This document shows, in pieces, positions 6,755 to 27,550 of a stretch of DNA of 64,000 nucleotides. Source of the stretch: Paenibacillus sp. UNC499MF (GTDB taxonomy: Bacteria > Bacillota > Bacilli > Paenibacillales > NBRC-103111); NCBI RefSeq assembly GCF_900107975.1, contig NZ_FNVF01000001.1:873237-937236 (forward strand), in the 5' to 3' direction. Every line of letters starts with the position of its first letter. The stretch's first letter is position 1. Below the pieces are notes generated by a model that saw only the letters and a program-made list of their open reading frames with translations, ran no database searches and was not told the origin of the DNA. The position numbers and the translations under genes are program-made.

Positions 6755-7753
6755 ATGAAAACTAGACAAGTAAAAATCTTGGGAACAGGAGCCTATCTGC
6801 CGGAAAAGCGGGTAACCGCGGAAGATTTGGATGCAAAACTCGGCAAACCCGAGGGCTGGGTATATAAAAAATCGGGCGTTAAGGTCAGGCATTACGCCGA
6901 AAACGAAAGTGTGTCGCAGATGGGAGCGAAGGCCGCCTTCGCGGCACTGGCGGACGCCGGTCTTGAAGCGGGCCGGCTCGACTGTATTATTTGCACGAAT
7001 GCGGTGCCGGAACAGCCCATTCCATGTACGGCGGCGCTTATTCAAAGCGAGATGGGACTGGGCGATTCGGGCATTCCGTGTCTCGACGTCAACTCCACCT
7101 GCCTGTCGTTTCTTGCCGGTCTGGATCTGATTTCCTACCTGATCGACGCGGGGCGGTATGAGCGCGTTCTGCTGGTGGCCCCGGAAATCGCCTCGGTCGG
7201 CCTGAATTACAGCCAGTCCGAAAGCGCGATTCTGTTCGGGGACGGAGCGGCCGCCGTAGTAGTCGGGCGAACCCCTGCGGGCGAAAGCTCGGGTATCCTG
7301 GCTTCCCGGATAGAAACCTACGGCTCCGGTGCGGCGCTCTCCGAGGTGAGAGGGGGCGGCTCCAAGCTGCCGTCGATCGCTTACAAACCGGAGCGAATAG
7401 ATGATTTCCTGTTTGATATGCAGGGGGAAGCCCTGTTTAAGAAAACGTCGAAGCTGCTTCCCCATTTTCTGAAAAAGCTGTTCGGAGAAGGCGGTGTCAC
7501 GATGGAAGACGTCGGCCTCGTCATTCCCCATCAGGGAAGCGCCATGGCGATGAGGCTTTTGCAGCGAAAGCTGCAAATCCCGGACGGCAAGCTGATGAAC
7601 ATCATCGAACATCACGGCAATATGATTGCCGCCTCGCTGCCGATGGGCCTGCATGAAGCGGTCCGGCTGGGCAGGCTGAAGCGCGGGGATTTGACGGCCG
7701 TTATCGGCATCTCGGCCGGACTGTCCCTGGGCGGGCTTCTCCTTGAGTATTAG
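6755..7753 (+). CDS. 3-oxoacyl-ACP synthase III (FabH-like)
   Basis: A 332-residue thiolase-fold condensing enzyme. The catalytic triad of the KASIII family is intact: Cys116 in VNSTCLSF, His259 in IPHQGS and Asn289 in HHGNMIAASLP. GDGAAAVVVG near residue 163 is the conserved glycine-rich loop. It should carry out a decarboxylative Claisen condensation between an acyl thioester and a malonyl-type unit, or a non-decarboxylative variant as in OleA. It opens a nine-gene operon that does not resemble a fatty-acid synthesis locus, so it is more likely a specialised paralogue than housekeeping fabH. The next gene overlaps it by 11 bases. Confidence 0.9.
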   Translation: MKTRQVKILGTGAYLPEKRVTAEDLDAKLGKPEGWVYKKSGVKVRHYAENESVSQMGAKAAFAALADAGLEAGRLDCIICTNAVPEQPIPCTAALIQSEMGLGDSGIPCLDVNSTCLSFLAGLDLISYLIDAGRYERVLLVAPEIASVGLNYSQSESAILFGDGAAAVVVGRTPAGESSGILASRIETYGSGAALSEVRGGGSKLPSIAYKPERIDDFLFDMQGEALFKKTSKLLPHFLKKLFGEGGVTMEDVGLVIPHQGSAMAMRLLQRKLQIPDGKLMNIIEHHGNMIAASLPMGLHEAVRLGRLKRGDLTAVIGISAGLSLGGLLLEY

Positions 7754-8993
7754 GAAGAAGCCGGAGAGCCTCCGCATCCTGATTACCGGAGGCCGGGCGC
7801 CCGCCGCACTGGATTTGGCCCGCCAGCTTTCCGCCCTCGGCCATACGATTTGCGCGGCGGAAAGTCTGGGGAGCCCTCTGCTGCGCTTTTCCCGCTGCAT
7901 AGAGAAATTTACCCGCATTCCGGGGCCGCGGGAAAATCCGGACGCGTTTGCGGAAGCGCTGCAAACCGTCGTCCGGGAACAGCGCATCGATCTGCTGATC
8001 CCGACATGCGAAGAGATCTATTACATTGCGGCCATCAAGGACCGGCTCCACGGCTGCACCGTGCTGACCGACAGCTTCGCCAAACTGACCGCGCTTCACG
8101 ACAAAGCGTCTTTTATCCGGCTGGTTGAGGCCATGGGGCTGCCGGCACCTCATACGATTCTGTTGGAAACGGAGGAGGAATTTCGCGCGCTTCCGGAAAA
8201 GGATGACGGCCGTAAATGGGTACTGAAGCCCGTTTACTCCAGATTTGCGAACCACGTGCGCCTGTACAGTCCGGGAGAAGATATGCCCCGGATTGACGTT
8301 TCGCAGAAGAACCCGTGGGTTGCCCAGCATTTCGTCGAAGGACGGGAGTACTGCACCTATGCGATTGCCCATGAAGGCCGCCTGACCGCCTATGCGGATT
8401 ATGCCCCCGATTATACGGCGGGGCGCGGGGCCGGTATTTATTTTAAATCGTGCGGCCGGCAGGATCTTTACGGATGGGTGGAGCGATTTGTCCGCGAAAC
8501 CGGATTTACGGGACAAATCGCGTTTGACTTTATCGTCACTGAAGCCGGGGTTATCTATCCGCTGGAGTGCAATCCGCGGGCAACGAGCGGGCTTCATCTT
8601 TTTACGCCCGAAGAGGGGATAGACCGGGCTCTGCTGGACTGCTCGGAAACGGTTGTAACGCCTTCTCCCGGCGGCCGTCCCGCCATGATTACCGCCGCGA
8701 TGCTGATGTACGGAGCGGCCGCGGACCGTACGCCCGCCGGGTTCCGTCACTGGATCGCCAGCCTTGCGCGCGGCAGGGATGTGATTTTCAGCCCGGGCGA
8801 TTGGGGGCCTGCCCTTGCCCAAGGGCGGATTTTGCTGGACTTATGGAGAGAGGCGCGGGCAAAACGCGTGCCGCTTAAAGAAATGACCACATACGACATC
8901 GAATGGAATGGTTGCTATGAAAGCTTTGGTGACGGGGGCGACAGGTTTTCTCGGAGGAAATCTGGTGCGCCGCCTGCTGGAGGAAGGCTATGA
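7743..8993 (+). CDS. ATP-grasp domain protein (first of two paralogues)
   Basis: A 416-residue protein of the carbamoyl-phosphate-synthase-like ATP-grasp group, which joins a carboxylate to an amine or thiol through an acyl-phosphate. An N-terminal pre-ATP-grasp Rossmann part (ILITGGRAPAALDLARQL) is followed by KWVLKPVYSRFANHV, AQHFVEGREYC and the Mg/ATP segment PLECNPRATSGLHLF. It starts at TTG inside the end of the KASIII gene, implying translational coupling. Its C-terminus runs 77 bases into the next gene; homology with the second ATP-grasp protein ends at YDIEWNG, so the last 25 or so residues look like a run-on tail. The substrate is unknown. Confidence 0.85.
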   Translation: MSIRKKPESLRILITGGRAPAALDLARQLSALGHTICAAESLGSPLLRFSRCIEKFTRIPGPRENPDAFAEALQTVVREQRIDLLIPTCEEIYYIAAIKDRLHGCTVLTDSFAKLTALHDKASFIRLVEAMGLPAPHTILLETEEEFRALPEKDDGRKWVLKPVYSRFANHVRLYSPGEDMPRIDVSQKNPWVAQHFVEGREYCTYAIAHEGRLTAYADYAPDYTAGRGAGIYFKSCGRQDLYGWVERFVRETGFTGQIAFDFIVTEAGVIYPLECNPRATSGLHLFTPEEGIDRALLDCSETVVTPSPGGRPAMITAAMLMYGAAADRTPAGFRHWIASLARGRDVIFSPGDWGPALAQGRILLDLWREARAKRVPLKEMTTYDIEWNGCYESFGDGGDRFSRRKSGAPPAGGRL

Positions 8994-9912
8994 AGTGACG
9001 GCGATAGGTCGCAACCCGGAAGCGGGAAGAAGACTTATGCTGGAAGGAGCCGGCTTCCTGCGGATGGACCTGGCGTCTGAGGAGATGCCGGCAGCCGTAC
9101 GGGGCCACGAGCTTGTTTTTCACTGCGGAGCGATGTCCGCTCCGTGGGGGGCTTACCGGGACTTTTACACCTCCAATGTGACGGGGACGCGGCAGATCAT
9201 CCGGGGGTGCATGGAGCACGGCGTCCGACGGCTGATCTACGTGTCGACGCCGTCGATCTATTTCGATTACCGGGACCGACTGGGAATCTCCGAAGAAGAA
9301 CCCCTGCCGCTAAGAGGCGTCAACGGCTACGCACAGACGAAACGTCTGGCGGAAAACGAACTCGATGCCGCCCATAAAGCCGGGCTCCCGGTAATCACGA
9401 TCCGCCCGAGAGGGCTCTTCGGACCCGGAGACACGGCGATTTTCCCGCGGCTGCTGCGCGCCAACGAGGAGAAGTTCGTGCCGGTTTTCGGCGGCGGACG
9501 CGCATTTATGGATGTCACTTACATCGACAACGTGACGGAAGCGCTTCTGTGCTGCGCGCGCGCCGATCAAGCCTGCGACGGGCGGAAGTATAACATCACC
9601 AACGGCGAGCCCGTTTATGTGTACGAGCTGCTGGAGGAGCTTTTCCGGCTGCTGGAAATGCCCTTCCGCGCGAGGAAAATACCGTATCCGGCCGCATACG
9701 GTGCCGCCGCGGCAATGGAAGCCTTCGCGGCGCTTCCTTTCGTGCGCAAAGAACCGATGCTCACGAGATACACGGTAGCGCTGCTCGCTTTCAGCCAGAC
9801 GCTGGATATATCCAAAGCGCAGCGTGAGCTCGACTACAGGCCCCCGGTGTCCGTCGCTGACGGTATCCGGCGCTTCAGCCGGTGGTGGAAGGAACAGGAG
9901 GAACGAGCATGA
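8917..9912 (+). CDS. NAD(P)-dependent epimerase/dehydratase-type reductase
   Basis: A 331-residue extended short-chain dehydrogenase. GATGFLGGNLVRRLL (residues 6-20) is the dinucleotide-binding motif, and the catalytic Tyr-Lys pair is in GYAQTKRLAE, with STPSIYF upstream supplying the Ser/Thr. It resembles the 3-beta-hydroxysteroid-dehydrogenase/OleD group as much as sugar epimerases, so reduction of a beta-keto product of the neighbouring KASIII is plausible but inferred. The ATG at 8917 gives the Rossmann start; its ribosome binding site is weak and the start lies inside the ATP-grasp gene, so translation is probably coupled. Confidence 0.88.
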   Translation: MKALVTGATGFLGGNLVRRLLEEGYEVTAIGRNPEAGRRLMLEGAGFLRMDLASEEMPAAVRGHELVFHCGAMSAPWGAYRDFYTSNVTGTRQIIRGCMEHGVRRLIYVSTPSIYFDYRDRLGISEEEPLPLRGVNGYAQTKRLAENELDAAHKAGLPVITIRPRGLFGPGDTAIFPRLLRANEEKFVPVFGGGRAFMDVTYIDNVTEALLCCARADQACDGRKYNITNGEPVYVYELLEELFRLLEMPFRARKIPYPAAYGAAAAMEAFAALPFVRKEPMLTRYTVALLAFSQTLDISKAQRELDYRPPVSVADGIRRFSRWWKEQEERA

Positions 9913-10754
9913 AACTGACGATGCACTGCACAGGTACATGCAAACAGCTGGAGAGTTTGTCTATGCGCGGAGGGAAATGGAAGTCCATCGCGTTTCCGGG
10001 TCTTTTTGCTATGATAGAGCATCCTTCCGAAGGGTTAATTTTGTTTGACACGGGATATTCCCCGCGGTTTGCGGAGGCGACGAGGCGGCTGCCTTATGCC
10101 CTCTACCGCTGGACGACTCCGGTAGATACGGAGGGATATCTGTCCGCGGCAGAGCATGTAAAGGCGGCCGGATACGTTCCGGAGGATGTGACTTCGGTCA
10201 TTATTTCGCATTTTCATGGAGATCACATCTGCGGGCTGGGAGACTTTCCGAACGCGAAGTTAATCTGCTCCAAAGCGGGCTACGAATCGGTCGCTGCTTT
10301 AAAAGGGCTGGCCGCGGTAAAAAGGGCGGTGCTTCCGGACCTGATTCCGCCGGATTTCGAGGCCCGGGCGAGCTGGGTGGAACAGTGCCCGGAAGCGGAC
10401 CTGCCGGCCGTGTGCCGCCCGTTCGAACGGGGCCGGGACCTGTTTGGCGACGGAAGCGTGACCGCCGTGGATCTTTCCGGCCATGCCGCGCACCAGATCG
10501 GCGTTTTCCTCAGAGGAACGGACGGAACCCCCGTGCTGCTCGGCGCGGACGCAAGCTGGTCGGCGCAGGCCGTCCGGGAGAACCGGCTGCCCAGTCCGCC
10601 CGCTTTTATTTTGTTCGACGGTAGGCGGGACTACAAACGCACTTTCGGCAATCTCGTCGAGCTGCAGCGCAGGCAGCCGGGGATGCGCCTTCTTTTTACC
10701 CATTGCGCGGAAGCGTGGGAACTTTGCGGAAAGGAGGGCATTGAACTCCCGTGA
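9909..10754 (+). CDS. MBL-fold metallo-hydrolase
   Basis: A 281-residue metallo-beta-lactamase-fold enzyme. The metal-binding signature is clear in SHFHGDHICG (HxHxDH), with GHAAHQIGVF giving the next His and LLGADASW the bridging Asp. The start overlaps the previous stop as ATGA and has AGGAGG 7 bases upstream. In this operon it may act as a thioesterase or lactonase releasing an acyl product, but the family also includes glyoxalases and phosphodiesterases, so the reaction is not fixed. Confidence 0.88.
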   Translation: MKLTMHCTGTCKQLESLSMRGGKWKSIAFPGLFAMIEHPSEGLILFDTGYSPRFAEATRRLPYALYRWTTPVDTEGYLSAAEHVKAAGYVPEDVTSVIISHFHGDHICGLGDFPNAKLICSKAGYESVAALKGLAAVKRAVLPDLIPPDFEARASWVEQCPEADLPAVCRPFERGRDLFGDGSVTAVDLSGHAAHQIGVFLRGTDGTPVLLGADASWSAQAVRENRLPSPPAFILFDGRRDYKRTFGNLVELQRRQPGMRLLFTHCAEAWELCGKEGIELP

Positions 10755-12106
10755 AACTCGCCCTGCTGCTTAAACAATACGCTTTGACCAAATGGAACAA
10801 ACATAGATGGAAAAGCCGGGAACATCTTGAAGCGTGGCAAAATGCGCGAGTCCGCGCTTTTCTCGAAGAAACCCGGCGCAAGTCGCCATTCTACGCCCGC
10901 CTGTATGACGGTCTTCCGCTTGAAAACTGGCGTGAATGGCCGACTATCGACAAGGCGGCCATGATGGACGGCTTCGACGAGCTGAACACAGCGGGCATCA
11001 CGAAGGACGAAGCGCTCCATGCGGCACTTCAGGCGGAGCGCGAACGCGACTTTACCCCCGAGCTAAACGGCGTTACCGTCGGGCTCTCCTCCGGCACGTC
11101 GGGCAGCCGCGGGCTGTTCATCGTCAGCGCCGGGGAAAGAGCGGCGTGGGCAGGGGCCGCACTGGCAAAGGCGCTGCCGGGCTCTCTGCTGCGCAAGCAC
11201 CGGATCGCCTTCTTTCTCCGCGCGGACAGCAACCTGTACCAGACGGTACAGTCACGGAGAATCCGGTTCAGCTTCTTCGACATGATCCGCCCGGTCCGGG
11301 AGCATATCGAGCGGCTCGGCGGGCTGCAGCCGACCCTTCTGATCGCTCCGCCGTCCATGCTCCGGCTGCTGGCGGAAGCGAAGCGGCGGGGGGAATTGGC
11401 GATTGCGCCGGACAAGATCATTTCCGTCGCGGAAGTGCTGGAGCCGATTGACCGGCAGGTGATCGAGCATGTTTTCGGTACCCGGCTGCACCAGATTTAC
11501 CAGTGCACCGAAGGGTTTCTGGGCGCGACGTGCGAACACGGGACGCTGCATCTCAACGAGGATATCGCCGTGATCCAGCGGGAGTATGTGGATGCGGAGC
11601 GGCGGACGTTCATGCCGGTGATTACGGATTTCTCGCGTACATCCCAGCCCATCATTCGCTACCGGCTGAACGATCTGCTCACGCTCCGGGATGAGCCTTG
11701 TCCCTGCGGTTCGGTGTTCACGGCGGTCGAATCCGTCAGCGGACGCGCGGACGATTTATTCTTCGGCCGGAGTACGGAGGTGGGCGGAGACGTTCCCCTC
11801 TTTCCGGATTTTATCCGGCGGGCGGTTATGATGGCTTCGGACGAAATAACCGAGTACAAAGTCGTCCAGCTCGGTCCGGAAAGTCTGGAAGTATCAGTCC
11901 GCACAAAAGAAGGAGCGCCGGACGTCACAGGAGCGCTCCGGCGGGAACTGACCGGCATTTTCGGGCAGCATGGCTGCCTGCCTCCCGAAATTACGTTTAC
12001 GCCTTACTCGTTTCAGCCGGGGTTAACGAAATTGCGTAGAATTGAGCGCGCTTTTTCCGTGGAGAAGGGTAGGGGGGCCGACGAAGAGAGGAACGTCAGA
12101 AGATGA
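10751..12106 (+). CDS. Adenylate-forming ligase, F390-synthetase/PaaK-like
   Basis: A 451-residue acyl-adenylating enzyme. The nucleotide loop is GLSSGTSGSRG (about residues 114-124), QIYQCTEGFLG matches the A5 region, YRLNDLL the ribose-binding Asp, and CPCGS the cysteine pair typical of PaaK and coenzyme-F390-synthetase relatives. It would activate a carboxylic acid as an AMP ester for transfer to CoA, an amine or a hydroxyl. It starts with GTG overlapping the upstream stop (GTGA) and overlaps the next ATP-grasp gene by 4 bases. True F390 synthesis is unlikely because this organism group lacks F420-dependent methanogenesis. Confidence 0.87.
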   Translation: MKLALLLKQYALTKWNKHRWKSREHLEAWQNARVRAFLEETRRKSPFYARLYDGLPLENWREWPTIDKAAMMDGFDELNTAGITKDEALHAALQAERERDFTPELNGVTVGLSSGTSGSRGLFIVSAGERAAWAGAALAKALPGSLLRKHRIAFFLRADSNLYQTVQSRRIRFSFFDMIRPVREHIERLGGLQPTLLIAPPSMLRLLAEAKRRGELAIAPDKIISVAEVLEPIDRQVIEHVFGTRLHQIYQCTEGFLGATCEHGTLHLNEDIAVIQREYVDAERRTFMPVITDFSRTSQPIIRYRLNDLLTLRDEPCPCGSVFTAVESVSGRADDLFFGRSTEVGGDVPLFPDFIRRAVMMASDEITEYKVVQLGPESLEVSVRTKEGAPDVTGALRRELTGIFGQHGCLPPEITFTPYSFQPGLTKLRRIERAFSVEKGRGADEERNVRR

Positions 12107-13404
12107 ATGTGCTTCTCACAGGCTGCCGCTCCTACACGGCTCTGGATCTGGCGAGACGGTTTCGTGCCTGCGGGTGGAATGTTTTTGCCGCAGACAGTGT
12201 AAAATTTCCGGTCTGCCGCGGTTCACGGGCGGTGAAAAAGTTTTTCCATATTCCTTCACCGAGAGAAGGATACCGGGAGTTTATTGACGCGCTGTCGGCC
12301 GTTATCCGGACGGCCGGAATCGATCTGCTTCTGCCCACGAGTGAGGAAATCTTCTATATCGCTCATGGCCGGGAAGAACTGGCCCGATACTGCCGCGTGT
12401 TCTGCGACGATTTCGACGTGCTGAAATCGCTGCACAACAAGTGGACATTTTCCTTGCATACGGAAGGAAAGTCCGTGAAAACTCCCGCGACGAAGCTGCT
12501 CACGTCCGCCGCCCGGCTTGAAGAACTCGGCGATCCTTCCGCTTTCGCGTTCAAGCCGGTGTACAGCCGCTTCGCTTCGGAGGCGCTTCTGGCTCCGTCC
12601 CGGCTTCCGGCGGGATTTGCGCCGTCCGTGGAGCGCCCCTGGATCGCGCAGAGGTATGTCCGCGGCCGGGAGCTGTGCAGCTATCACTTGGCCGCGGACG
12701 GCAAAATCACGGCCTCCGGCTCCTACGAGCCGCTGTACCGGCTCGGCCAGGCTTCCGGCTATTACTTCAAGCCGGTACACCGCGAGAAAATCGACAGCTT
12801 TGCGGCCGAACTGGTCCGCAAGCTCGATTTTACAGGGCATGTGGCGTTTGACTACATAGAGGAAAAGGACGGGACCCTGCATGTGCTCGAATGCAACCCG
12901 CGGGCGACGAGCGGGCTGCATCTCGCCGGCACCGCGGGGCTGATGAAGCCGTTCGGCGGAATGCGAGAAGCAGTTCCGGAAACAACCGCGGAGAAGTTTT
13001 TGGAGGAAGGCGCTGCTCCTGGGGCTGTATATTGCGGGTGGAAACCTGGCGAATTATCATCACATCATGCGCCGGACAACCGACCGGCAGGATCGGCCGG
13101 GCGGGCAAGCCCGTCAAACCCGGCAAACCCAGCAAACCCCGAGTCCGCGGAAGCTCCCCGGATGATCGGGTATGCCATGCTGGGAAATCCCTTTTACCAC
13201 GGCTTTGGGCTCTCCGGAATCGCGCGGTGGCTGAGCGATTTCCGCAGCGGACGGGATGTGCTTTTCAGCCGGGAAGACCCGTGGGTGCCATTGCTGCATG
13301 GAGGCAGTCTGGCCGAAACGGTTTTCGACTCGCTGCGGAAGCGGGTCGCTTTTAAGGATGCGGCAACGGCCGACATCGAATGGGACGGCGAAGATTTGAA
13401 GTGA
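12103..13404 (+). CDS. ATP-grasp domain protein (second paralogue, with insertion)
   Basis: A 433-residue paralogue of the ATP-grasp protein encoded four genes upstream: both share VYSRFA in the nucleotide-binding strand, ECNPRATSGLHL in the metal site and (A/Y)DIEW(D/N)G at the end. It differs by about 45 extra residues near 300-350 that are low in complexity (Pro, Asn, Ala, Ser, including SNPANPANP). It overlaps the adenylating enzyme by ATGA and has GAGAGGAACG upstream. Two ligases in one operon suggest two successive amide or ester bond formations, an inference. Confidence 0.85.
   Translation: MNVLLTGCRSYTALDLARRFRACGWNVFAADSVKFPVCRGSRAVKKFFHIPSPREGYREFIDALSAVIRTAGIDLLLPTSEEIFYIAHGREELARYCRVFCDDFDVLKSLHNKWTFSLHTEGKSVKTPATKLLTSAARLEELGDPSAFAFKPVYSRFASEALLAPSRLPAGFAPSVERPWIAQRYVRGRELCSYHLAADGKITASGSYEPLYRLGQASGYYFKPVHREKIDSFAAELVRKLDFTGHVAFDYIEEKDGTLHVLECNPRATSGLHLAGTAGLMKPFGGMREAVPETTAEKFLEEGAAPGAVYCGWKPGELSSHHAPDNRPAGSAGRASPSNPANPANPESAEAPRMIGYAMLGNPFYHGFGLSGIARWLSDFRSGRDVLFSREDPWVPLLHGGSLAETVFDSLRKRVAFKDAATADIEWDGEDLK
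13112..13141 (+). repeat. Short low-complexity insertion in ATP-grasp gene
   Basis: A run of near-identical acccggcaa / acccagcaa units inside the second ATP-grasp gene, encoding NPANPANP. A close copy lies at 26797-26829 inside an unrelated flavoprotein gene. It keeps the reading frame in both. Confidence 0.7.
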
Positions 13405-13476
13405 AGGTCTGATGCCTGATGCGCTTAAGAACCTTTTTTAACCGCAAAACCTATAACGGAACGGGAGGTGCCGCCG

Positions 13477-14037
13477 GTGCGGGACTATACTTTTGACGAA
13501 ACGTTTGTAAAACGAGCGGGGGCGCGGGAAGAAATTTTGGAGATGTTCCTTCGGAATTGGAAGCTTCCCCTGACGGAAGACGAAACTGAAGAGATCGCCG
13601 CAAGACAGAAAAATCCTTTTCCGGCGAACTCGCCCTTTTACGATTCCTACATCCCGATCGATCCCGCCGGATGGCGTATGCCGCAGGGGGAACTGCCGCA
13701 CGCGTATGCGGATTTATTGCGCTACTCGGACGGAGGAGAATTTCAGAACGGGGAACGATATTTCCAATTTTTCTCCACATCCGACTTCCGGGAAATGAAC
13801 CTGGCGTACGAGCTGCCCGAATATATGCCTTTGTCCGTTTCTTTTGCGATGGACGGCTGCGGAAACCATTATCTTTTCGATATGAGACAAGCGCCGGTGA
13901 AAGGCGAATATCCCATCCTTGCCGCGCATTCGGGCAGCCTGGGGTACGATGACTGCGTCCGGGTGGCGGATTCCTTCGAGGAGCTGTGCCGGGGAAGAAG
14001 CTCGCTGGACGATGAATTAGACAGCCGTTACACCTGA
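13477..14037 (+). CDS. SMI1/KNR4 family protein
   Basis: A 186-residue member of the SMI1/KNR4 (SUKH) group. ELPHAYADLLRYSDGGEF is the family's LPxxYxxfLxxsdGG core, followed by FAMDGCGNHYLFDMR, GEYPILAAHSG and the VADSFEELCRG end helix. GTG at 13477 is chosen because GGGAGG lies 8 bases upstream. It sits inside the biosynthetic operon, 72 bases after the ATP-grasp gene and 19 before the acyltransferase-like gene. Its role there is unclear: SUKH proteins bind protein partners, and some are immunity factors. Confidence 0.82.
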   Translation: MRDYTFDETFVKRAGAREEILEMFLRNWKLPLTEDETEEIAARQKNPFPANSPFYDSYIPIDPAGWRMPQGELPHAYADLLRYSDGGEFQNGERYFQFFSTSDFREMNLAYELPEYMPLSVSFAMDGCGNHYLFDMRQAPVKGEYPILAAHSGSLGYDDCVRVADSFEELCRGRSSLDDELDSRYT

Positions 14038-14056
14038 ACGGCCGGGGAGGGACTCA

Positions 14057-15250
14057 ATGACACAGCCGGCTGAATCTACAGAAGAATGGCAGGCGGAGCA
14101 GAATAATTTGAACGGGGCTGAGGAGTGTACTCCCGTGAATGAAAGCGGCCCGGGGAAATCTCATCCGGCGAACGAGATGACGAGGGCCTACACAGAGCCG
14201 CTGATCGACGGCGGCACCGAAGCGTATATCCGGAACGTGCGGACGACAATGGAACTGGTCCGGGCCGGAGAGCAGCTGCTTCCCGTAACGGTGAACGAAA
14301 CGGAGTACGAGAACTCCTATGTTTGTTCGCCTTATTCGACCTACGTGTCCTACGCGCTGGAAGAGCTGGTGCTGTTCAAGAGCGAGCTGCTGAAAAGCGT
14401 ATTGCGGGGAGTGATAGGCTTCCTATCGCCGCTGCTGAAAGGCGCCCGGATCAACCGGAACGTGCATGTCAATAACTGGCTGCTTTCCACGAATTTGTAC
14501 GAGGAACTGCCGCGGGAGGATATCCGTGAGCTGACCGGCGGTCTGCTGAAGCGTTATCCGTCGCATGCTATCATTTTCAGGTCGCTGAATGAGGTGACCA
14601 ATCCGCAGCTGATGAAGGATCTGACGAAACTGGGATGGATTTTCGTTCCGAGCCGGCAGGTGTACTTTTTCGACGGGCGCGAGCCGGATTATATGCACAA
14701 ATCGAACAACGTATGGGACAAAAAGCTGCTCAGGCGCTCACCGCTGCGGATTGTGGGGCACGAGGAGATTGTACCGTCCGATTATCCGCGCATCGTGGAG
14801 CTTTACGAGGATTTGTACATCCGTAAATATTCCCGGCTGAATCCGCGGTTTACGGAAGCTTATATCGCCAATTGCCATAAGCACGGGCTGCTTCGGATCG
14901 GCGGTTTGAGAGACAGCTCGGGGATATTGCAGGGTGTGATCGGCTGTTTCGAAAAAGCCGGCGTCATCACGGCGCCGCTGGTCGGCTACAACACCTCTCT
15001 TCCGCAGAAGGACGGGCTTTACCGGATGCTGATGAATCTGGTGCTGACCCGGGCGGCCGAACAATCGAAGCTGCTGCATTTAAGCTCCGGCGCAGCGCAT
15101 TTCAAGCGTATCCGGGGAGGAAGCCCGGCCATCGAATACAGCGCCGTTTATATCCGGCATCTGCCGCTGAGGCGGCGGGCCGTATGGCTCGGATTAAGTC
15201 GACTTTTGAATGGAGTTGGGGTACCCGTGATGAGGAAGTACCGGTTATGA
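14057..15250 (+). CDS. Acyltransferase-like protein (weak GNAT resemblance)
   Basis: A 397-residue protein with no confident family match by eye. The first 40 residues are hydrophilic and probably disordered. The second half (about 230-390) shows GNAT-like order: RIVELYEDLYIRKYS, GLLRIGGLRDSSGILQGVIG and a C-terminal helix-strand with GAAHFKRIRGG. A strong GGGGAGGG lies 7 bases before the ATG. The stop overlaps the Rieske gene start (ATGA). An N- or O-acyltransferase acting on the operon's product fits the context, but this is a guess. Confidence 0.6.
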   Translation: MTQPAESTEEWQAEQNNLNGAEECTPVNESGPGKSHPANEMTRAYTEPLIDGGTEAYIRNVRTTMELVRAGEQLLPVTVNETEYENSYVCSPYSTYVSYALEELVLFKSELLKSVLRGVIGFLSPLLKGARINRNVHVNNWLLSTNLYEELPREDIRELTGGLLKRYPSHAIIFRSLNEVTNPQLMKDLTKLGWIFVPSRQVYFFDGREPDYMHKSNNVWDKKLLRRSPLRIVGHEEIVPSDYPRIVELYEDLYIRKYSRLNPRFTEAYIANCHKHGLLRIGGLRDSSGILQGVIGCFEKAGVITAPLVGYNTSLPQKDGLYRMLMNLVLTRAAEQSKLLHLSSGAAHFKRIRGGSPAIEYSAVYIRHLPLRRRAVWLGLSRLLNGVGVPVMRKYRL

Positions 15251-16326
15251 ATCGGACGAGGAACGATGTTAGCAAAACGGACGGCGCGAAGGAATCCGCC
15301 GTGTACGCGGAGCTGGAAAAGCACTGGCTGCCGCTCTGCCCGTCGCAGGATCTGAAGCGCAAGCCGCTCGGGCTGACGGTGCTTGACGTGCCGCTCGTCC
15401 TGTTCCGCACGGAGGAGGGCGTACACGCCCTGCTGGACCGCTGCCCGCACCGGAATGTGCCTCTGTCGGGAGGGCGACTGAAAGCGGGAAAGCTGGTCTG
15501 CCCTTACCACGGGTGGGAATTCGACGGAACCGGAACATGCACCCGGGTGCCGGGTCTGTGCACGTTCAAGCCGGGTCCGCACCAGGACGCGTCTCCGGTT
15601 GCCGTGCGTGAGCGGGACGGCTTCGTCTGGGTCCGGCTCGGTGAAGGGAAGGCCGCCGGGGAGCCGGATGGAATGCCCGGTCCGGAGCCTTTGTCCCTGC
15701 CGTTTATGAACGACCCGGAGTACTACTCCTTCGTCTGGAAAACGGCCGTCCGGGGATCGCTGCTGAACGCGGCGGAAAACCTGCTGGACGCCACGCACAC
15801 GCACTATGTCCACGCGGGACTCATCCGGACGGACAGCGGTCGCCAGACCGTGAACGCCCGCATCCGGGCGGAAGGTGCCACCGTTGAGATCGAATATACA
15901 GGCGAGTCCGGGCAGGCCGGTCTTATCTCGCGCTTGTTCGAGCGGGACAGGCAGCGGAGCTACGGCCGGTTCTTTATGCCGGGTGTCGCCCAGATAGAAT
16001 ATTCCTCCGAGAAAGGCTTAACGCTGCTCATCACCGCCGTGATGAGACCGACTTCCTACGCTTATCAGGATATTTACGCGGTCATTACCATGAAGCGCGG
16101 CCGGTTCACGAACGGGCTGAAGAAGCGGCTGCTTACCCCTTTTCTGAAAAAAGCGCTAAACCAGGACATCGCGATCGTCGAGACCCAGCAGAGGGCCCTG
16201 GAACGCTGGGGCGGCGAAAGCTTTCATTCCACGCAGGCGGACCTGATCCGTCCTTACCTGGAGCAGCTTATGAAAGGGAAAGTATACGACGCTCCTTATG
16301 AGAAGAAGGTCCAGTTGTTTGTGTAG
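15247..16326 (+). CDS. Rieske 2Fe-2S oxygenase, large-subunit type
   Basis: A 359-residue Rieske non-haem iron oxygenase. The [2Fe-2S] ligands are in CPHRNVPLSGG and CPYHGWEF (about residues 59-86). The catalytic domain carries LLDATHTHYVHAG, which provides the Asp and two His of the mononuclear iron site. Such enzymes hydroxylate, desaturate or cyclise, and need a ferredoxin reductase that is not encoded nearby. It ends the nine-gene operon. Its presence argues for an oxidatively tailored product rather than a plain lipid. Confidence 0.9.
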   Translation: MNRTRNDVSKTDGAKESAVYAELEKHWLPLCPSQDLKRKPLGLTVLDVPLVLFRTEEGVHALLDRCPHRNVPLSGGRLKAGKLVCPYHGWEFDGTGTCTRVPGLCTFKPGPHQDASPVAVRERDGFVWVRLGEGKAAGEPDGMPGPEPLSLPFMNDPEYYSFVWKTAVRGSLLNAAENLLDATHTHYVHAGLIRTDSGRQTVNARIRAEGATVEIEYTGESGQAGLISRLFERDRQRSYGRFFMPGVAQIEYSSEKGLTLLITAVMRPTSYAYQDIYAVITMKRGRFTNGLKKRLLTPFLKKALNQDIAIVETQQRALERWGGESFHSTQADLIRPYLEQLMKGKVYDAPYEKKVQLFV

Positions 16327-24403: not shown

Positions 24404-25558
24404 ATGAATCAGAACAAGACGACTCCCGCAACCGCAATTCTTGGGATAGGCACGGCAGTCCCGGCCCACCGGCTGGAACAATCGGAAGTGGTTCTCCGTT
24501 TGGCTCAGGCATTGGAACGTTATCCCGATTCCGCGCGCTGGGCCAAAAGGTTGTTCAAGCAGTGCGGCGTGCAAACCCGGTACACCTGCGAGCCCGGCCT
24601 CCTGGAGCCTGTCTCTTCCTGCCGCTATTTGCCGGATACGGAGCCGGGCCTTATCCCGACGACTGCCGAACGGATGGCGGTTTATAAAAAGGAATCGCTG
24701 CCGCTGGCGCATCAAGCGGCCGGACAAGCTTTGGCGGACAGCGGTCTCCGCGTTTCGGACATCACGCATCTGATTACCGTAAGCTGCACGGGGCAGTTCC
24801 TGCCGGGGCTGGATGCCGTGCTCGTAAGAGAACTGGGCTTATCTCCGGAAGTTTCCCGCATCCCGCTTCAATTTATCGGATGCGCGGCCGGCCTGCGTGC
24901 CGTATGCCTCGCCCGTGAAATTGCCGATTCCGCTCCGCAGGCGAACGTGCTGATCGTGAGCGTCGAACTGTGCACGCTGCATATACAGCCCTCGGGCAGC
25001 AAAGAAGCTCTTTTCGGCGCGTCTTTTTTCGGAGATGGGGCCTCCGCCTGCGTTATCGGCCGCACGGGACAATCGCGGCACGGAATATTCGGGCTCGGTG
25101 AACACCGGTCCGTCCTTATTCCGGAAGCGGCGGAGGAGATGACCTGGGAAGTGGGCAACTTCGGTTTCGATTTATACTTGTCGCCCCATATACCCAAGCT
25201 CATCACAAACCGCATTCCGCCGGAAGTCGGTAAACTGCTTGGCGGGGAACGTCTGCCCGAGCTGTGGGCGATACATCCCGGAGGCAAAGGGATCGTGGAT
25301 GCGGTCCAGCAGGTATATGGCCTGACGGAGGAACAGACAGCGCCCAGCAGACAAGTGCTGCGGGATTTCGGCAACCTTTCTTCCGCTACGATTTTTTTCG
25401 TCCTGCAGCAGATGCGTACGGAGCTTCGGACAGCGGGAGCGGATACCGCCGATGGAATCGCTCTGGCTTTCGGTCCCGGAATAACGGCCGAGCTTATCCG
25501 CTTCACCTACATGCCGGTAGGCGCGGCGGAGGAGAAAACAGCGCATGCCGCCGTTTGA
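24404..25558 (+). CDS. Type III polyketide synthase (chalcone-synthase family)
   Basis: A 384-residue homodimeric type III PKS. All three catalytic residues are present: Cys160 (FIGCAAGLRA), His291 (WAIHPGGKGI) and Asn324 (FGNLSSATI). Bacterial members extend an acyl-CoA starter with malonyl-CoA units and cyclise to alkylpyrones, alkylresorcinols or tetrahydroxynaphthalene. It is followed by a methyltransferase gene overlapping by 14 bases, then a flavin oxidoreductase and an MMPL exporter. That resembles B. subtilis bpsAB with added tailoring and export. The ribosome binding site is weak (GGAG 13 bases before the ATG). Confidence 0.95.
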   Translation: MNQNKTTPATAILGIGTAVPAHRLEQSEVVLRLAQALERYPDSARWAKRLFKQCGVQTRYTCEPGLLEPVSSCRYLPDTEPGLIPTTAERMAVYKKESLPLAHQAAGQALADSGLRVSDITHLITVSCTGQFLPGLDAVLVRELGLSPEVSRIPLQFIGCAAGLRAVCLAREIADSAPQANVLIVSVELCTLHIQPSGSKEALFGASFFGDGASACVIGRTGQSRHGIFGLGEHRSVLIPEAAEEMTWEVGNFGFDLYLSPHIPKLITNRIPPEVGKLLGGERLPELWAIHPGGKGIVDAVQQVYGLTEEQTAPSRQVLRDFGNLSSATIFFVLQQMRTELRTAGADTADGIALAFGPGITAELIRFTYMPVGAAEEKTAHAAV

Positions 25559-26291
25559 CCGTCTGCGCAGCCGTTCGCCGGAATCGGAGTATATGGACGA
25601 TTTCACTCGCGGCGGAGCCGAACTCCGGGAAGCTCTGCGGCATCTCCGCAGGCTCAACCGTCTTTTCGCAGCGCCGGGTCCGACTTTGTACGGGATCGGG
25701 AGATTGTGGGCGGCCGCCGGAAAACCGCAGCATTTGACCGTGCTTGACGTCGGTTCCGGCTCCGGCGACATAAACCGTCATGTGCTTCGCTGGGCGGATG
25801 AACGCAAGGTAAGCGTGAAGATCACCCTTTGTGATATTACGGAAGAAGCCTGCGAGGAGGCACGGCATTTGTTCCGCGGGGAACCTAGAGTGGAGATCCG
25901 CCGGGCGGATTTGTCCGAGCTTCCCGAAGGGTGCGCCGATATTGTGACCGCCGCCCAGTTTCTCCACCACTTCTCCCGGGAAGATCTCCCGGACGTCGTG
26001 AGGACGATGCTCCGGGCTTCCCGCTTCGGCATCGCCGTCAACGATATTCACCGTCACTGGCTTGCCTGGTCCGCCGTCTGGCTGGCTTCCCGCATCTTAT
26101 CGGGGAACCGTTACATCCGCCATGACGGACCGCTGTCCGTCGCCAAAGGATTCTCCCGGGAGGACTGGTCCGAGCTGAGAAGAGTACTGGAGATGCCGGA
26201 TTATCACGTTTCGTGGAGACCGCTGTTCCGCTATGCGGTCGTAATTCCCCGGCAGCCCGGGCCGGAAGCGGACCCGGAGCCGAACCCGTGA
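25545..26291 (+). CDS. Class I SAM-dependent methyltransferase
   Basis: A 248-residue methyltransferase. Motif I is VLDVGSGSGDINRHV (about residues 65-79), with CDITEEACEEA as motif II and ADIVTAAQFLHHFS as motif IV. The start has GGAGGAG upstream and lies within the PKS reading frame. It probably O-methylates the polyketide product, by analogy with the methyltransferase role of BpsB, although BpsB belongs to a different (membrane) family. It overlaps the flavoprotein gene (GTGA). Confidence 0.9.
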   Translation: MPPFDRLRSRSPESEYMDDFTRGGAELREALRHLRRLNRLFAAPGPTLYGIGRLWAAAGKPQHLTVLDVGSGSGDINRHVLRWADERKVSVKITLCDITEEACEEARHLFRGEPRVEIRRADLSELPEGCADIVTAAQFLHHFSREDLPDVVRTMLRASRFGIAVNDIHRHWLAWSAVWLASRILSGNRYIRHDGPLSVAKGFSREDWSELRRVLEMPDYHVSWRPLFRYAVVIPRQPGPEADPEPNP

Positions 26292-27517
26292 CTGTAACCG
26301 AGACGGATGCTGCCGTTCTGGGAGGCGGCTTAGCCGGAAGCCTTATCGCTAAAAGTCTGGCGGAAAAAGGATGGCGGACGCTCCTGGTGGACCGGAACCG
26401 CTTTCCCCGCCATAAGGTGTGCGGGGAGTTTCTGTCGCCGGAAGTCCGGCAGATGCTGGATGCGGCCGGATTGACGGACCGCGTGTCGGCCCTTCGCCCC
26501 GCCGCGGTGGAGCGGGTGCGGCTGATTTCCGCGGAAGGCGGACGTGTCGACATCCCGCTGCCGGGAATCGCGATGGGACTCAGCCGCTTCCGGCTTGACG
26601 AAGCGCTGCATGAAGCCGCCGCAGAAGCAGGAGCCCGGGTCCGGACATCTTCGGCCGTTCTCTCGGTTGAGAGGCTTTCGGACGAGAGCTGCGAGGTGAG
26701 AGTGAGGAGAGGCAGCGGCATTGAGATCATCCGGGCCCGCACGGTTATTGCCGCCTGGGGGGCGAACGGGCAGGCTGCCGTAACCGGTTTTTCGGGCCCG
26801 GCAACACCCGGTAACCCAGCAAATCCCGCCCCCTCCGCATTGGTGGATCGCGGCCGGAGCACCTTGTACCCGTGGAGCCGCAGCGCCCCCGACTATATGG
26901 GCGTCAAATCCCACTACACGGGCATCGAGATGGAGCCGGTCGTCGAGCTGTATCTCTTCCCGGGCGGCTACCTAGGGCTGTGCCCCGTCGAAGACGGCCT
27001 CGTGAACGCGTCCGCGCTGCTGTCGCGGGATGCGTTCCGCGGCGCGGGCAAGAGCGTCTCCGCGCTGCTCGAAGCCGCGGCGCAGCGGTGCCCCCCGCTT
27101 CATTCGAAGCTGAAGCGGGGGCTGCCTGTGCCCGGTGCTCAGGCAGCGGTCGCGCCGGTGAAGCTGAACCGGCGCCCGAACCCTTGGGACATGGTGCCGC
27201 GTCTGGGGGATTCATCGGTGATGATTCCCCCGCTGTGCGGGGACGGCATGTCCATGGCCCTCCGCTCGGCGCGCCTGTGCGCCCCCCTGGCAGACGGATA
27301 TCTGCGGGGGGAGCTGAGCCTGGCCGGGTGGGAAGAGCAGTACGTCCGCGCCGTTAAGCGGACCTTCGGGGGGCCGCTGCGGTGGGGAAGGCTGCTGCAG
27401 TCGTCCCTCGGCAGTCCGGCCGTGGTCCGCATGCTGCTGCGTCTTGCGCAGCTTTCGCCGGGCGTGGCCTCCGGATTATTGAAGGCCACCCGGCTGAAGC
27501 CGGAAGGAGAAAACTGA
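26288..27517 (+). CDS. FAD-dependent oxidoreductase (geranylgeranyl-reductase-like)
   Basis: A 409-residue flavoprotein. The N-terminal FAD-binding motif is AAVLGGGLAGSLIAKSLAEKG, HKVCGEFLSPE is the family's second signature, and GDSSVMIPPLCGDGMSMAL is the C-terminal GD motif. It may hydroxylate or reduce the methylated polyketide. The region around residues 170-190 contains a short Pro/Asn/Gly/Ala insertion (TPGNPANPAP) that looks foreign to the fold. Starts at GTG, coupled to the methyltransferase stop. Confidence 0.88.
   Translation: MTVTETDAAVLGGGLAGSLIAKSLAEKGWRTLLVDRNRFPRHKVCGEFLSPEVRQMLDAAGLTDRVSALRPAAVERVRLISAEGGRVDIPLPGIAMGLSRFRLDEALHEAAAEAGARVRTSSAVLSVERLSDESCEVRVRRGSGIEIIRARTVIAAWGANGQAAVTGFSGPATPGNPANPAPSALVDRGRSTLYPWSRSAPDYMGVKSHYTGIEMEPVVELYLFPGGYLGLCPVEDGLVNASALLSRDAFRGAGKSVSALLEAAAQRCPPLHSKLKRGLPVPGAQAAVAPVKLNRRPNPWDMVPRLGDSSVMIPPLCGDGMSMALRSARLCAPLADGYLRGELSLAGWEEQYVRAVKRTFGGPLRWGRLLQSSLGSPAVVRMLLRLAQLSPGVASGLLKATRLKPEGEN
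26797..26829 (+). repeat. Short low-complexity insertion in flavoprotein gene
   Basis: acccggtaacccagcaaatccc closely matches the insert at 13112-13141 in an unrelated gene, also in frame and also encoding NPANP. Confidence 0.65.
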
Positions 27518-27550
27518 TCTTCGGCACCTATTCGAAAAAGAGGGGAGGAC

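What the first reader, a model, noticed from the sequence alone, without database searches (positions are those of the whole stretch)
6755..16326. Nine-gene operon of unfamiliar composition, a candidate new biosynthetic system
Seen: nine same-strand genes packed with 4- to 77-base overlaps: KASIII, ATP-grasp, epimerase-type reductase, MBL hydrolase, adenylating ligase, second ATP-grasp, SUKH protein, acyltransferase-like protein, Rieske oxygenase. Known: OleA (KASIII-like), OleD (epimerase-type reductase) and OleC (adenylating) form beta-lactones or olefins; ATP-grasp ligases make amide bonds. Inference: an acyl chain is condensed and reduced, activated, joined to amines and oxidised, giving a lipid-like conjugate or beta-lactone-like product. 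I know of no characterised pathway with this set.
Basis: partly seen in the sequence, partly recalled or inferred. Interest (0 to 1): 0.82.

Follow-up and report, generated by a model that had tools for sequence, protein, structure and literature searches.

The report
Widespread lipid-like biosynthesis gene cluster
This Paenibacillus operon is one version of a gene set, found in many bacterial groups including about one in eight complete E. coli genomes, that probably builds a fatty two-part molecule and attaches different water-loving groups to it, but whose product is not known from this work.

Summary
The operon is real: all nine reading frames are there, and the catalytic residues I could test are kept. 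Its core (ketosynthase KAS, reductase EPI, hydrolase MBL, ligase LIG) is kept together in 72 of 79 LIG-bearing loci from many phyla, and with other partners in 672 of 5,426 complete E. coli genomes. KAS groups with the chain-fusing pyrone ketosynthases MxnB/CorB, apart from FabH, and lacks OleA's catalytic glutamate. The "acyltransferase" has the double-GNAT fold of aminoacyl-tRNA-dependent transferases; AG1 resembles PylC. LIG, AG and GNAT occur in the same 17 of 59 relatives, even where unlinked; AG and GNAT are fused in Helicobacter; Neisseria carries core and AG-GNAT-Rieske at two places. Other lineages have glycosyltransferases, a DUF3419 protein or desaturases instead. Best reading: the core makes a fused, reduced, activated acyl unit; a module adds the polar part, here amino acids. 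Product and chemistry are not shown; exceptions exist (LIG without core, AG without GNAT). SUKH is a local insertion. The literature search was too weak to claim absence from print.

The parts
6755..7753 (+). KAS: KASIII-type ketosynthase, 332 aa, Cys116-His259-Asn289
   Evidence: NF005541 437 bits over cut-off 402; triad in 69 of 69 rows, window included; with MxnB/CorB apart from FabH, 100/100
7743..8993 (+). AG1: ATP-grasp ligase, 416 aa, TTG start
   Evidence: NF005315 409 bits over cut-off 406; AF2 pLDDT 90.1; fold nearest 2pn1 Z 25.6 (293 aligned, 3.9 A), purK, PylC Z 24.4 (289 aligned, 3.0 A); amino-acid ligases RizA and 3vot in the Foldseek list
8917..9912 (+). EPI: extended SDR reductase (ORF from 8908; start 8917 likely)
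   Evidence: Epimerase/3Beta_HSD; best named family OleD, below its cut-off; Ser113, Tyr141, Lys145 in 77 of 77 rows
9909..10754 (+). MBL: metallo-beta-lactamase-fold hydrolase, lactonase-like (ORF from 9882; start 9909 likely)
   Evidence: Lactamase_B; nearest NCBIfam AttM lactonase 71 bits, below cut-off 390; HxHxDH, His201, Asp223, His274 in 75 of 75 rows
10751..12106 (+). LIG: PaaK/F390-synthetase-type adenylating ligase
   Evidence: TIGR02304 494 bits over cut-off 252; Thr253, Glu254, Arg303, Tyr304, Asp308 in 78 of 78 rows, P-loop positions 76-78, Cys-x-Cys 77, Arg305 70
12103..13404 (+). AG2: second ATP-grasp ligase, paralogue of AG1 (38% identical)
   Evidence: ATP-grasp_3; alignment A3; two AG matches in each of the five genomes of the genus searched
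13468..14037 (+). SUKH-1 (SMI1/KNR4) protein, inserted; probably not part of the pathway
   Evidence: PF09346; found in 2 of 79 loci and 0 of 20; gaps of 63 and 19 bases on its sides
14057..15250 (+). GNAT: double-GNAT protein, probable aminoacyl-tRNA-dependent transferase
   Evidence: Acetyltransf_6; AF2 pLDDT 89.9, residues 1-35 low; nearest folds Sbb17/Sba18 Z 17.6-17.3, FemX Z 16.5-17.1, MprF/PGS Z 13.6-15.6
15247..16326 (+). RIE: Rieske non-haem iron oxygenase (ORF from 15184; start 15247 likely)
   Evidence: Rieske + VanA_C; Rieske and Fe ligands in 13 of 13 rows

Best explanation
A biosynthetic operon made of a widespread core plus a swappable decoration module. Inferred steps: (1) KAS, from the clade of the chain-fusing ketosynthases MxnB/CorB, loads one acyl chain on Cys116 and joins it to a second acyl or beta-ketoacyl thioester, giving a two-chain beta-keto intermediate that may close to a lactone; (2) MBL, a two-metal lactonase/thioesterase-type hydrolase, frees the acid; (3) EPI reduces a ketone to a hydroxyl; (4) LIG adenylates the acid and passes it to a nucleophile; (5) in this lineage AG1 and AG2 (ATP-grasp) and GNAT (aminoacyl-tRNA-dependent) add amino-acid units, and RIE hydroxylates or desaturates. 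The product would be an aminoacylated, two-chain lipid-like compound. Shown: conserved linkage, catalytic residues of the enzymes tested, the KAS clade, the predicted folds of GNAT and AG1, co-occurrence. Inferred: substrates, order of steps, product, role.
For: KAS, EPI and MBL within 6 kb and on the strand of LIG in 72 of 79 loci. KAS + MxnB/CorB apart from FabH at 100/100; 345 and 334 bits to MxnB/CorB, 285 to the best FabH, 123 to OleA. MxnB joins two beta-keto chains in vitro and has two substrate tunnels (PMC5724707; passages and two sections read). GNAT fold: the ten best by Z are aminoacyl-tRNA-dependent synthases (Sbb17, Sba18) and FemX. AG1 fold: 2pn1, purK, PylC. LIG over its cut-off, AG and GNAT in the same 17 of 59 relatives, with GNAT on another contig in G051 and G031. 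AG and GNAT lie in one 745-aa frame in L075 and L082. Neisseria G070: core at one place, AG, GNAT and RIE within 4 kb of each other at another. Of 15 genomes chosen for having no AG hit near the core, 14 have no AG anywhere in the assembly (a 16th, G072, was put in by mistake and has one). Other modules beside the core: GT21 and UGT-type glycosyltransferases, DUF3419, PAP2 + FA_hydroxylase + FA_desaturase, sulfotransferase.
Against: No product or activity is known. KAS has the same Cys-His-Asn triad as FabH, so ordinary malonyl extension is possible; whether KAS is sister to MxnB/CorB or contains them is open (AU p 0.43). A shared fold does not prove use of aminoacyl-tRNA: N-myristoyltransferase and mycothiol synthase are in the same lists with lower scores, and Foldseek's TM-scores by query length are only 0.28-0.49 in the 50 rows shown. 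AG does not always come with GNAT: 15 of 79 loci have AG and all core genes but no GNAT near (GNAT was sought genome-wide only in those whose genomes were searched), and G072 has AG without GNAT in the assembly. LIG also occurs without the core: Pseudomonas pMPPla107 L135, and L060 and L122 show LIG only. Modules are not strictly exclusive: Rhizobium L138 has AG, GNAT and RIE plus a glycosyltransferase nearby. The tie of other head-group genes to the core rests on neighbourhood in few loci (DUF3419 family in 3 of 79). No carrier-protein gene lies in the operon. L137 and L139 show no AG, GNAT or glycosyltransferase in the stretches viewed. The 17-of-59 match is inflated by shared ancestry, and absences in MAGs may be gaps.
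Confidence: 0.45

Rival explanations
1. KAS works like FabH: it extends one acyl chain with malonyl-ACP, MBL releases the beta-keto acid, EPI reduces it, and LIG attaches the resulting linear 3-hydroxy acid to amino acids or other nucleophiles, giving a one-chain lipid conjugate.
For: FabH-type triad intact; the best FabH still scores 285 bits; the PpyS paper places MxnB/CorB within the FabH clade (PMC4578411).
Against: KAS is with MxnB/CorB apart from the FabH rows at 100/100; 18 of 20 core- or LIG-bearing genomes have two or more PF08541 matches, so a further KASIII is usually present for simple extension.
Confidence: 0.25
2. An Ole-like beta-lactone or olefin pathway: condensation, reduction and adenylation-driven beta-lactone formation.
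For: EPI's best named family is OleD; reaction types match OleA, OleD and OleC; in the 55-row tree the one OleA-like row joins the KAS/MxnB side at 86/88, on a branch of length 3.58 flagged as unsure.
Against: The catalytic Glu of OleA/PpyS is Ile or Leu in 69 of 69 KAS rows (position by PMC4578411, and by alignment); OleA scores only 123 bits; LIG is TIGR02304 and none of its six NCBIfam hits is an OleC model; an OleD-like frame beside the OleA-like gene in L143 is 29% identical to EPI over 217 aa.
Confidence: 0.1
3. The final product is an alpha-pyrone or other lactone (signal or antibiotic) made by KAS, with MBL a lactonase that limits or opens it, and AG/GNAT later tailoring or self-protection.
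For: MxnB makes an alpha-pyrone; MBL's nearest named families and best PDB matches are lactonases.
Against: MBL is in the core of most loci with all metal ligands kept, which suits a biosynthetic step; EPI and LIG have no clear role in making a pyrone.
Confidence: 0.12
4. Housekeeping or catabolic operon, for instance degradation of an aromatic or fatty acid through a CoA ligase.
For: LIG is distantly related to phenylacetate-CoA ligases.
Against: Sporadic presence (e.g. 7 of 398 and 6 of 299 genomes, centre genomes included), a ketosynthase and several bond-forming ligases, no beta-oxidation family among the nine genes.
Confidence: 0.05

Closest known systems
MxnB / CorB chain-fusing ketosynthases (myxopyronin, corallopyronin)
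   Same: Nearest solved relatives of KAS, with it apart from FabH, same Cys-His-Asn triad, Val (there) or Ile/Leu (here) in place of OleA's Glu
   Different: They join chains made by large PKS/NRPS assembly lines; here KAS sits with a reductase, lactonase-like hydrolase and ligase, without a PKS in the operon
OleABCD olefin / beta-lactone pathway
   Same: Similar order of reaction types; EPI's best named family is OleD
   Different: KAS lacks the catalytic Glu; no alpha/beta hydrolase (OleB); ligase of another family; MBL extra
Aminoacyl-tRNA-dependent transferases (Sbb17/Sba18, FemX, MprF)
   Same: Double-GNAT fold over 236-282 aligned residues, Z 13.6-17.6
   Different: Only 9-14% identical; acceptor and use of tRNA unknown
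PylC and L-amino-acid ligases (ATP-grasp)
   Same: AG1 fold, Z 24.4 to PylC
   Different: 14% identical; substrates unknown
PqsA/PqsD/PqsE-type alkylquinolone genes (recalled)
   Same: Also pair an adenylating ligase, KASIII-type enzymes and an MBL-fold enzyme (recalled)
   Different: The PQS enzyme 3h76 (PqsD, recalled) scores 177 bits and PqsC at most 114, against 345 for MxnB; no EPI, AG or GNAT (recalled)

Membership tests
MxnB/CorB-type ketosynthase | Closer to MxnB/CorB than to FabH in a tree | tested here: met
   100/100 split in the 50-row tree; 95/81 in the 55-row tree; sister or nested unresolved (AU p 0.43)
MxnB/CorB-type ketosynthase | Fuses two beta-keto chains into an alpha-pyrone | not testable with these tools
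   needs assay
OleA (olefin) ketosynthase | Catalytic Glu from the partner subunit (E117 in OleA, E105 in PpyS) | tested here: not met
   Ile or Leu in 69 of 69 rows; alignment with the OleA-like L143 row; position from PMC4578411
Ole pathway | OleC-type ligase and OleB hydrolase in the operon | tested here: not met
   LIG is TIGR02304 over cut-off; no alpha/beta hydrolase family among the nine genes
OleD (2-alkyl-3-oxoalkanoate reductase) | Score over the NF042422 cut-off | tested here: not met
   236 bits against 580
TIGR02304 F390 synthetase-related | Score over curated cut-off and adenylation motifs | tested here: met
   494 bits against 252; motifs
Aminoacyl-tRNA-dependent transferases | Double-GNAT fold | tested here: met
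   predicted model and fold comparison
Aminoacyl-tRNA-dependent transferases | Uses aminoacyl-tRNA as donor | not testable with these tools
   needs assay
ATP-grasp ligases | ATP-grasp fold with conserved Glu/Asn metal ligands | tested here: met
   predicted fold; E275, N277, R279 invariant in 29 rows, taken as metal and phosphate ligands from general knowledge
Rieske oxygenases | CxH...CxxH cluster and Asp/His/His iron site | tested here: met
   13 of 13 rows
Quorum-quenching AHL lactonases | Score over curated cut-off of AttM/AiiA models | tested here: not met
   71 of 390 and 39 of 375 bits

The most novel reading that the evidence does not exclude
The core defines a new bacterial lipid class: a two-chain acyl unit made outside ordinary fatty-acid and phospholipid synthesis by a chain-fusing ketosynthase, which different bacteria turn into different polar lipids by swapping head-group modules (tRNA-dependent and ATP-grasp amino acids, sugars, homoserine-type, sulfate), including an unrecognised lipid of some E. 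coli lineages.
Probability: 0.3. Interest if true: 0.92.

Novelty: new variant of a known kind. Interest (0 to 1): 0.75.

Why it matters
Four linked genes of unknown product recur across many phyla, also in pathogens and commensals, and in 672 of 5,426 complete E. coli genomes (between narI and purU in the two records viewed). The set pairs a pyrone-clade ketosynthase with what looks like tRNA-dependent aminoacylation, a combination I know from no pathway (recalled). The split arrangement in Neisseria, the AG-GNAT fusion and the swapped modules give clear, testable predictions: strains with and without the core should differ by one family of compounds whose polar part follows the module.

Tried and rejected
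OleA/olefin reading: weakened by the missing Glu, the profile scores and the ligase family (see rivals); the tree with OleA in it does not help, since that row sits on a very long branch and joins the KAS side. Betaine, sugar or desaturase genes as general partners: rejected as general, since each occurs in only part of the loci. SUKH as a pathway member: rejected (2 of 79 and 0 of 20 loci). G072 was wrongly put among genomes lacking AG near the core: its locus L068 had already shown an AG1 hit.

Literature: ten searches. Of the four that required all terms, two returned papers: 5 papers on MxnB/CorB; 7 papers naming F390 synthetase with E. coli; two searches returned none. Of the seven I looked at passages in two (PMC9823363: a Pseudomonas syringae transposon hit named coenzyme F390 synthetase, kinship not checked; PMC2649909: an F390-synthetase-annotated gene in a fatty-acid cluster compared with ladderane genes, kinship not checked) and at the listing only for the other five. 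Of the five I read passages and sections 7 and 9 of PMC5724707 and parts 1 and 2 of 3 of PMC4578411, and the listing only of the other three. All six searches with a minimum below the full number of terms returned zero, which may be a fault of that mode; so I make no claim that the system is absent from print.

Limits: the search for related loci picks loci by patterns from LIG and keeps the best 80, so the 79 loci are a capped sample of LIG relatives, many from MAGs and some cut by contig ends; L016, L024, L035, L044, L060, L070 and L076 lack one or more core partners in view. AG, GNAT and RIE were counted by nearness on either strand. Three of the 20 extra loci (L123, L125, L127) have the contig lengths of contigs already among the 79 (L022, L026, L024). 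Row labels FabH, OleA, DarB-like and other in the trees were given by me: OleA from a recalled motif and an OleD-like neighbour, the rest by score and recall. In the PDB list the OleA score is the 3s21/3s23 row (3S23 is named OleA in PMC5724707); FabH, PqsD and 3row are named from recall. VIA-align and Foldseek lists are capped at 50 rows; families not listed are not excluded. Pfam was run only on chosen neighbour genes; other members of neighbour families are placed by clustering. Structures of KAS, LIG, EPI, MBL and RIE were not predicted (the two jobs went to GNAT and AG1).
Full report
WHAT IS THERE. The nine + strand reading frames exist (proteins P0001-P0009). Pfam and NCBIfam give: KAS, KASIII (NF005541, 437 bits, cut-off 402); AG1, ATP-grasp (NF005315, 409, cut-off 406); EPI, extended SDR; MBL, metallo-beta-lactamase fold; LIG, TIGR02304 'F390 synthetase-related' (494, cut-off 252); AG2, ATP-grasp; SUKH-1; GNAT, Acetyltransf_6; RIE, Rieske with VanA_C. 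Likely starts by upstream sequence are EPI 8917, MBL 9909, RIE 15247, which turns most overlaps into 4-base ones; SUKH is flanked by gaps of 63 and 19 bases. The genome is a Paenibacillus relative: the nearest named records are P. chitinolyticus NBRC 15660 and Paenibacillus sp. HGH0039, each 89% identical in LIG.

CONSERVATION. A scan of one genome per species with LIG gave 79 loci (capped at the best 80). Same-strand KAS, EPI and MBL lie within 6 kb of LIG in 72 of 79; AG is also near in 55, AG and GNAT in 39, and AG, GNAT and RIE in 12. Titles of the 79 records span Bacillota, Acholeplasma, Actinomycetes, Chloroflexota lineages, Acidobacteria, Armatimonadota, a cyanobacterium, Eremiobacterota, Bdellovibrionales, Campylobacterota, Alpha- and Gammaproteobacteria, Burkholderiaceae, Neisseria and Parachlamydiaceae; many are MAGs. 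The order differs by lineage: KAS-AG-EPI-MBL-LIG-GNAT in many Paenibacillaceae and Brevibacillus loci, KAS-EPI-MBL-LIG-AG-GNAT-RIE in Shewanella, Arcobacter and Jidaibacter, EPI-MBL-LIG-KAS in Enterococcus, Microbacterium and Acholeplasma. Of 20 further loci from genome searches, 17 show all four core genes; L126 and L127 lack an MBL hit and L122 shows LIG only. The set is sporadic: TIGR02304 hits at E 1e-60 or better in 7 of 398, 2 of 247, 1 of 150, 1 of 246 and 6 of 299 genomes drawn around carriers in five phyla (the carrier at the centre is counted, so two of these samples add none), and over the cut-off in 17 of 59 relatives.

E. COLI. A plasmid-collection search with LIG found E. coli records; the region viewed holds KAS, SDR, MBL, LIG, PAP2, sterol-desaturase-type and acyl-CoA desaturase genes between narI and purU. 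That seven-gene stretch matches 672 of 5,426 complete E. coli genomes, 671 over at least 80% of its length; strain JJ2434 has it at the same place. Complete genomes are a biased sample.

CATALYTIC RESIDUES. Invariant in the aligned rows, window included: KAS Cys116/His259/Asn289 in 69; EPI Ser113/Tyr141/Lys145 in 77; MBL HxHxDH plus His201, Asp223, His274 in 75; LIG Thr253-Glu254, Arg303, Tyr304 and Asp308 in 78, with P-loop and Cys-x-Cys positions in 76 to 78 of 78 and Arg305 in 70; RIE cluster and iron ligands in 13. AG has E275, N277, R279 invariant in 29 rows, AG1 and AG2 included. For GNAT no catalytic residue is known to test.

KAS. The closest solved structures are MxnB and CorB (345 and 334 bits), then FabH (285 for the best), PqsD (177) and OleA (123) with the family profile. 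A 55-row tree puts KAS and MxnB/CorB together at 95/81; there the one OleA-like row joins their side at 86/88, on a branch of length 3.58 that the program flags as unsure. Without the longest branches the split from FabH is 100/100. In the first tree MxnB/CorB nested inside KAS; in the second their place is open, and a tree with KAS alone is not rejected (AU p 0.43). The residue that acts as base in OleA and PpyS is replaced by Val in MxnB/CorB (PMC4578411) and by Ile or Leu in 69 of 69 KAS rows (alignment). MxnB joins two beta-keto chains and has two substrate tunnels (PMC5724707). So KAS is most likely a chain-fusing enzyme of the MxnB kind, but malonyl extension is not excluded; the PpyS authors place MxnB/CorB within the FabH clade.

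GNAT AND AG. The GNAT model (pLDDT 89.9) matches aminoacyl-tRNA-dependent peptide synthases Sbb17/Sba18 (Z 17.6-17.3), FemX (16.5-17.1) and MprF/PGS (13.6-15.6) over 236-282 residues at 9-14% identity; Foldseek ranks Sba18/Sbb17 and MprF first, with TM-scores by query length of 0.39-0.49. AG1 (pLDDT 90.1) matches 2pn1 (Z 25.6), purK and PylC (24.4), with the amino-acid ligases RizA and 3vot also in the Foldseek list. These point to amino-acid joining; a shared fold does not prove it.

LINKAGE WITHOUT NEIGHBOURHOOD. In 59 relatives LIG over the cut-off, GNAT and AG are found in the same 17 genomes and in none of the other 42 at the limits used, including G051 and G031 where GNAT lies on another contig. 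AG and GNAT lie in one 745-aa frame in Helicobacter valdiviensis L075 and in L082. In Neisseria G070 the core is at one place and AG, GNAT and RIE lie within 4 kb of each other at another. In Parachlamydiaceae G078 GNAT is on another contig. Of 15 genomes chosen for lacking AG near the core, 14 have no AG in the assembly and G070 has one; a sixteenth, G072, was put in by mistake and has AG beside its core. In 20 genomes searched for GNAT (these 16 and four AG-type ones) it was found in G070 and the four AG-type ones, so G072 has AG without GNAT. Relatedness inflates these counts, and MAG gaps can make absences.

OTHER MODULES. Beside the core in other lineages: GT21 and UGT-type glycosyltransferases and an SDR (Enterococcus L036; by clustering L039, part of it in L016 and L057; UGT-type in L052 and L118, by clustering L050 and L061); DUF3419 (BtaA-like, name recalled; Pfam on L053, clustering for L074 and L038), with ABC-type genes in L053 (permease match below its cut-off) and a methyltransferase in L038; PAP2, FA_hydroxylase and desaturases in E. 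coli and in L115, with PAP2 and similar frames in L114; sulfotransferase and TetR in Ketogulonicigenium and Paracoccus; an AMP-binding/carrier protein in L041. Several such enzymes add a polar group to a hydroxyl or acid (general knowledge). This is the basis of the core-plus-module reading and is neighbourhood evidence only. Against strict swapping, Rhizobium L138 has AG, GNAT and RIE and also a glycosyltransferase gene; against a fixed core, Pseudomonas pMPPla107 has a LIG relative with no core gene annotated around it.

READING. The core most likely fuses two acyl chains, frees and reduces the product and adenylates it; the module supplies the polar part. In this window that module is AG1, AG2, GNAT and RIE. 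AG2 is a second ligase found in all five genomes of the genus that were searched; SUKH is a local insertion. Nothing here shows the product, its place in the cell or its role.

KNOWN OR NEW. The enzyme families are known, and KAS, AG1 and LIG pass the cut-offs of NCBI families whose names state no pathway. I found no paper describing the set, but the literature search was weak (see Tried and rejected), and no cluster library such as MIBiG was at hand.

Noticed in passing
window 24404-29674: Type III polyketide synthase, methyltransferase, FAD oxidoreductase and MMPL transporter in a row, followed by an erythromycin-esterase-family gene at 31447-32883; looks like a separate alkylpyrone/resorcinol-type operon (recalled comparison).
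   Followed up: no
L142 6001-12882 (E. coli JJ2434): Core four genes plus PAP2, sterol-desaturase-type and fatty-acid desaturase genes between narI and purU; the stretch matches 672 of 5,426 complete E. coli genomes.
   Followed up: partly
L114, L115: Unnamed, probably enterobacterial genomes carry the core beside genes that look like LuxI/LuxR (recalled) and, in L114, a pectinesterase-family gene.
   Followed up: no
L140 3800-10366: A 227-kb plasmid of Paenibacillus urinalis carries KAS, ATP-grasp, reductase, MBL, LIG and GNAT genes in this order, followed by an SDR gene.
   Followed up: no
L075 8591-10828, L082: AG and GNAT are one 745-aa frame in Helicobacter valdiviensis and in the record titled Campylobacter jejuni isolate_W1.
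   Followed up: no
window 13468-14037: SUKH-1 gene between AG2 and GNAT; not found in same-genus loci L129 and L130, where GNAT follows AG2 directly.
   Followed up: partly
L011, L014, L015, L017, L019, L032: An SDR gene of one family follows LIG or GNAT in several Paenibacillus loci (family c7; Pfam adh_short on L011) and may be a further pathway reductase.
   Followed up: no
L135 8905-10203: Plasmid pMPPla107 of Pseudomonas amygdali holds a LIG relative with no KAS, reductase or MBL gene annotated in the 19 kb viewed.
   Followed up: no
G073:C4:41263-42357: The GNAT match in this genome holds one in-frame TGA.
   Followed up: no
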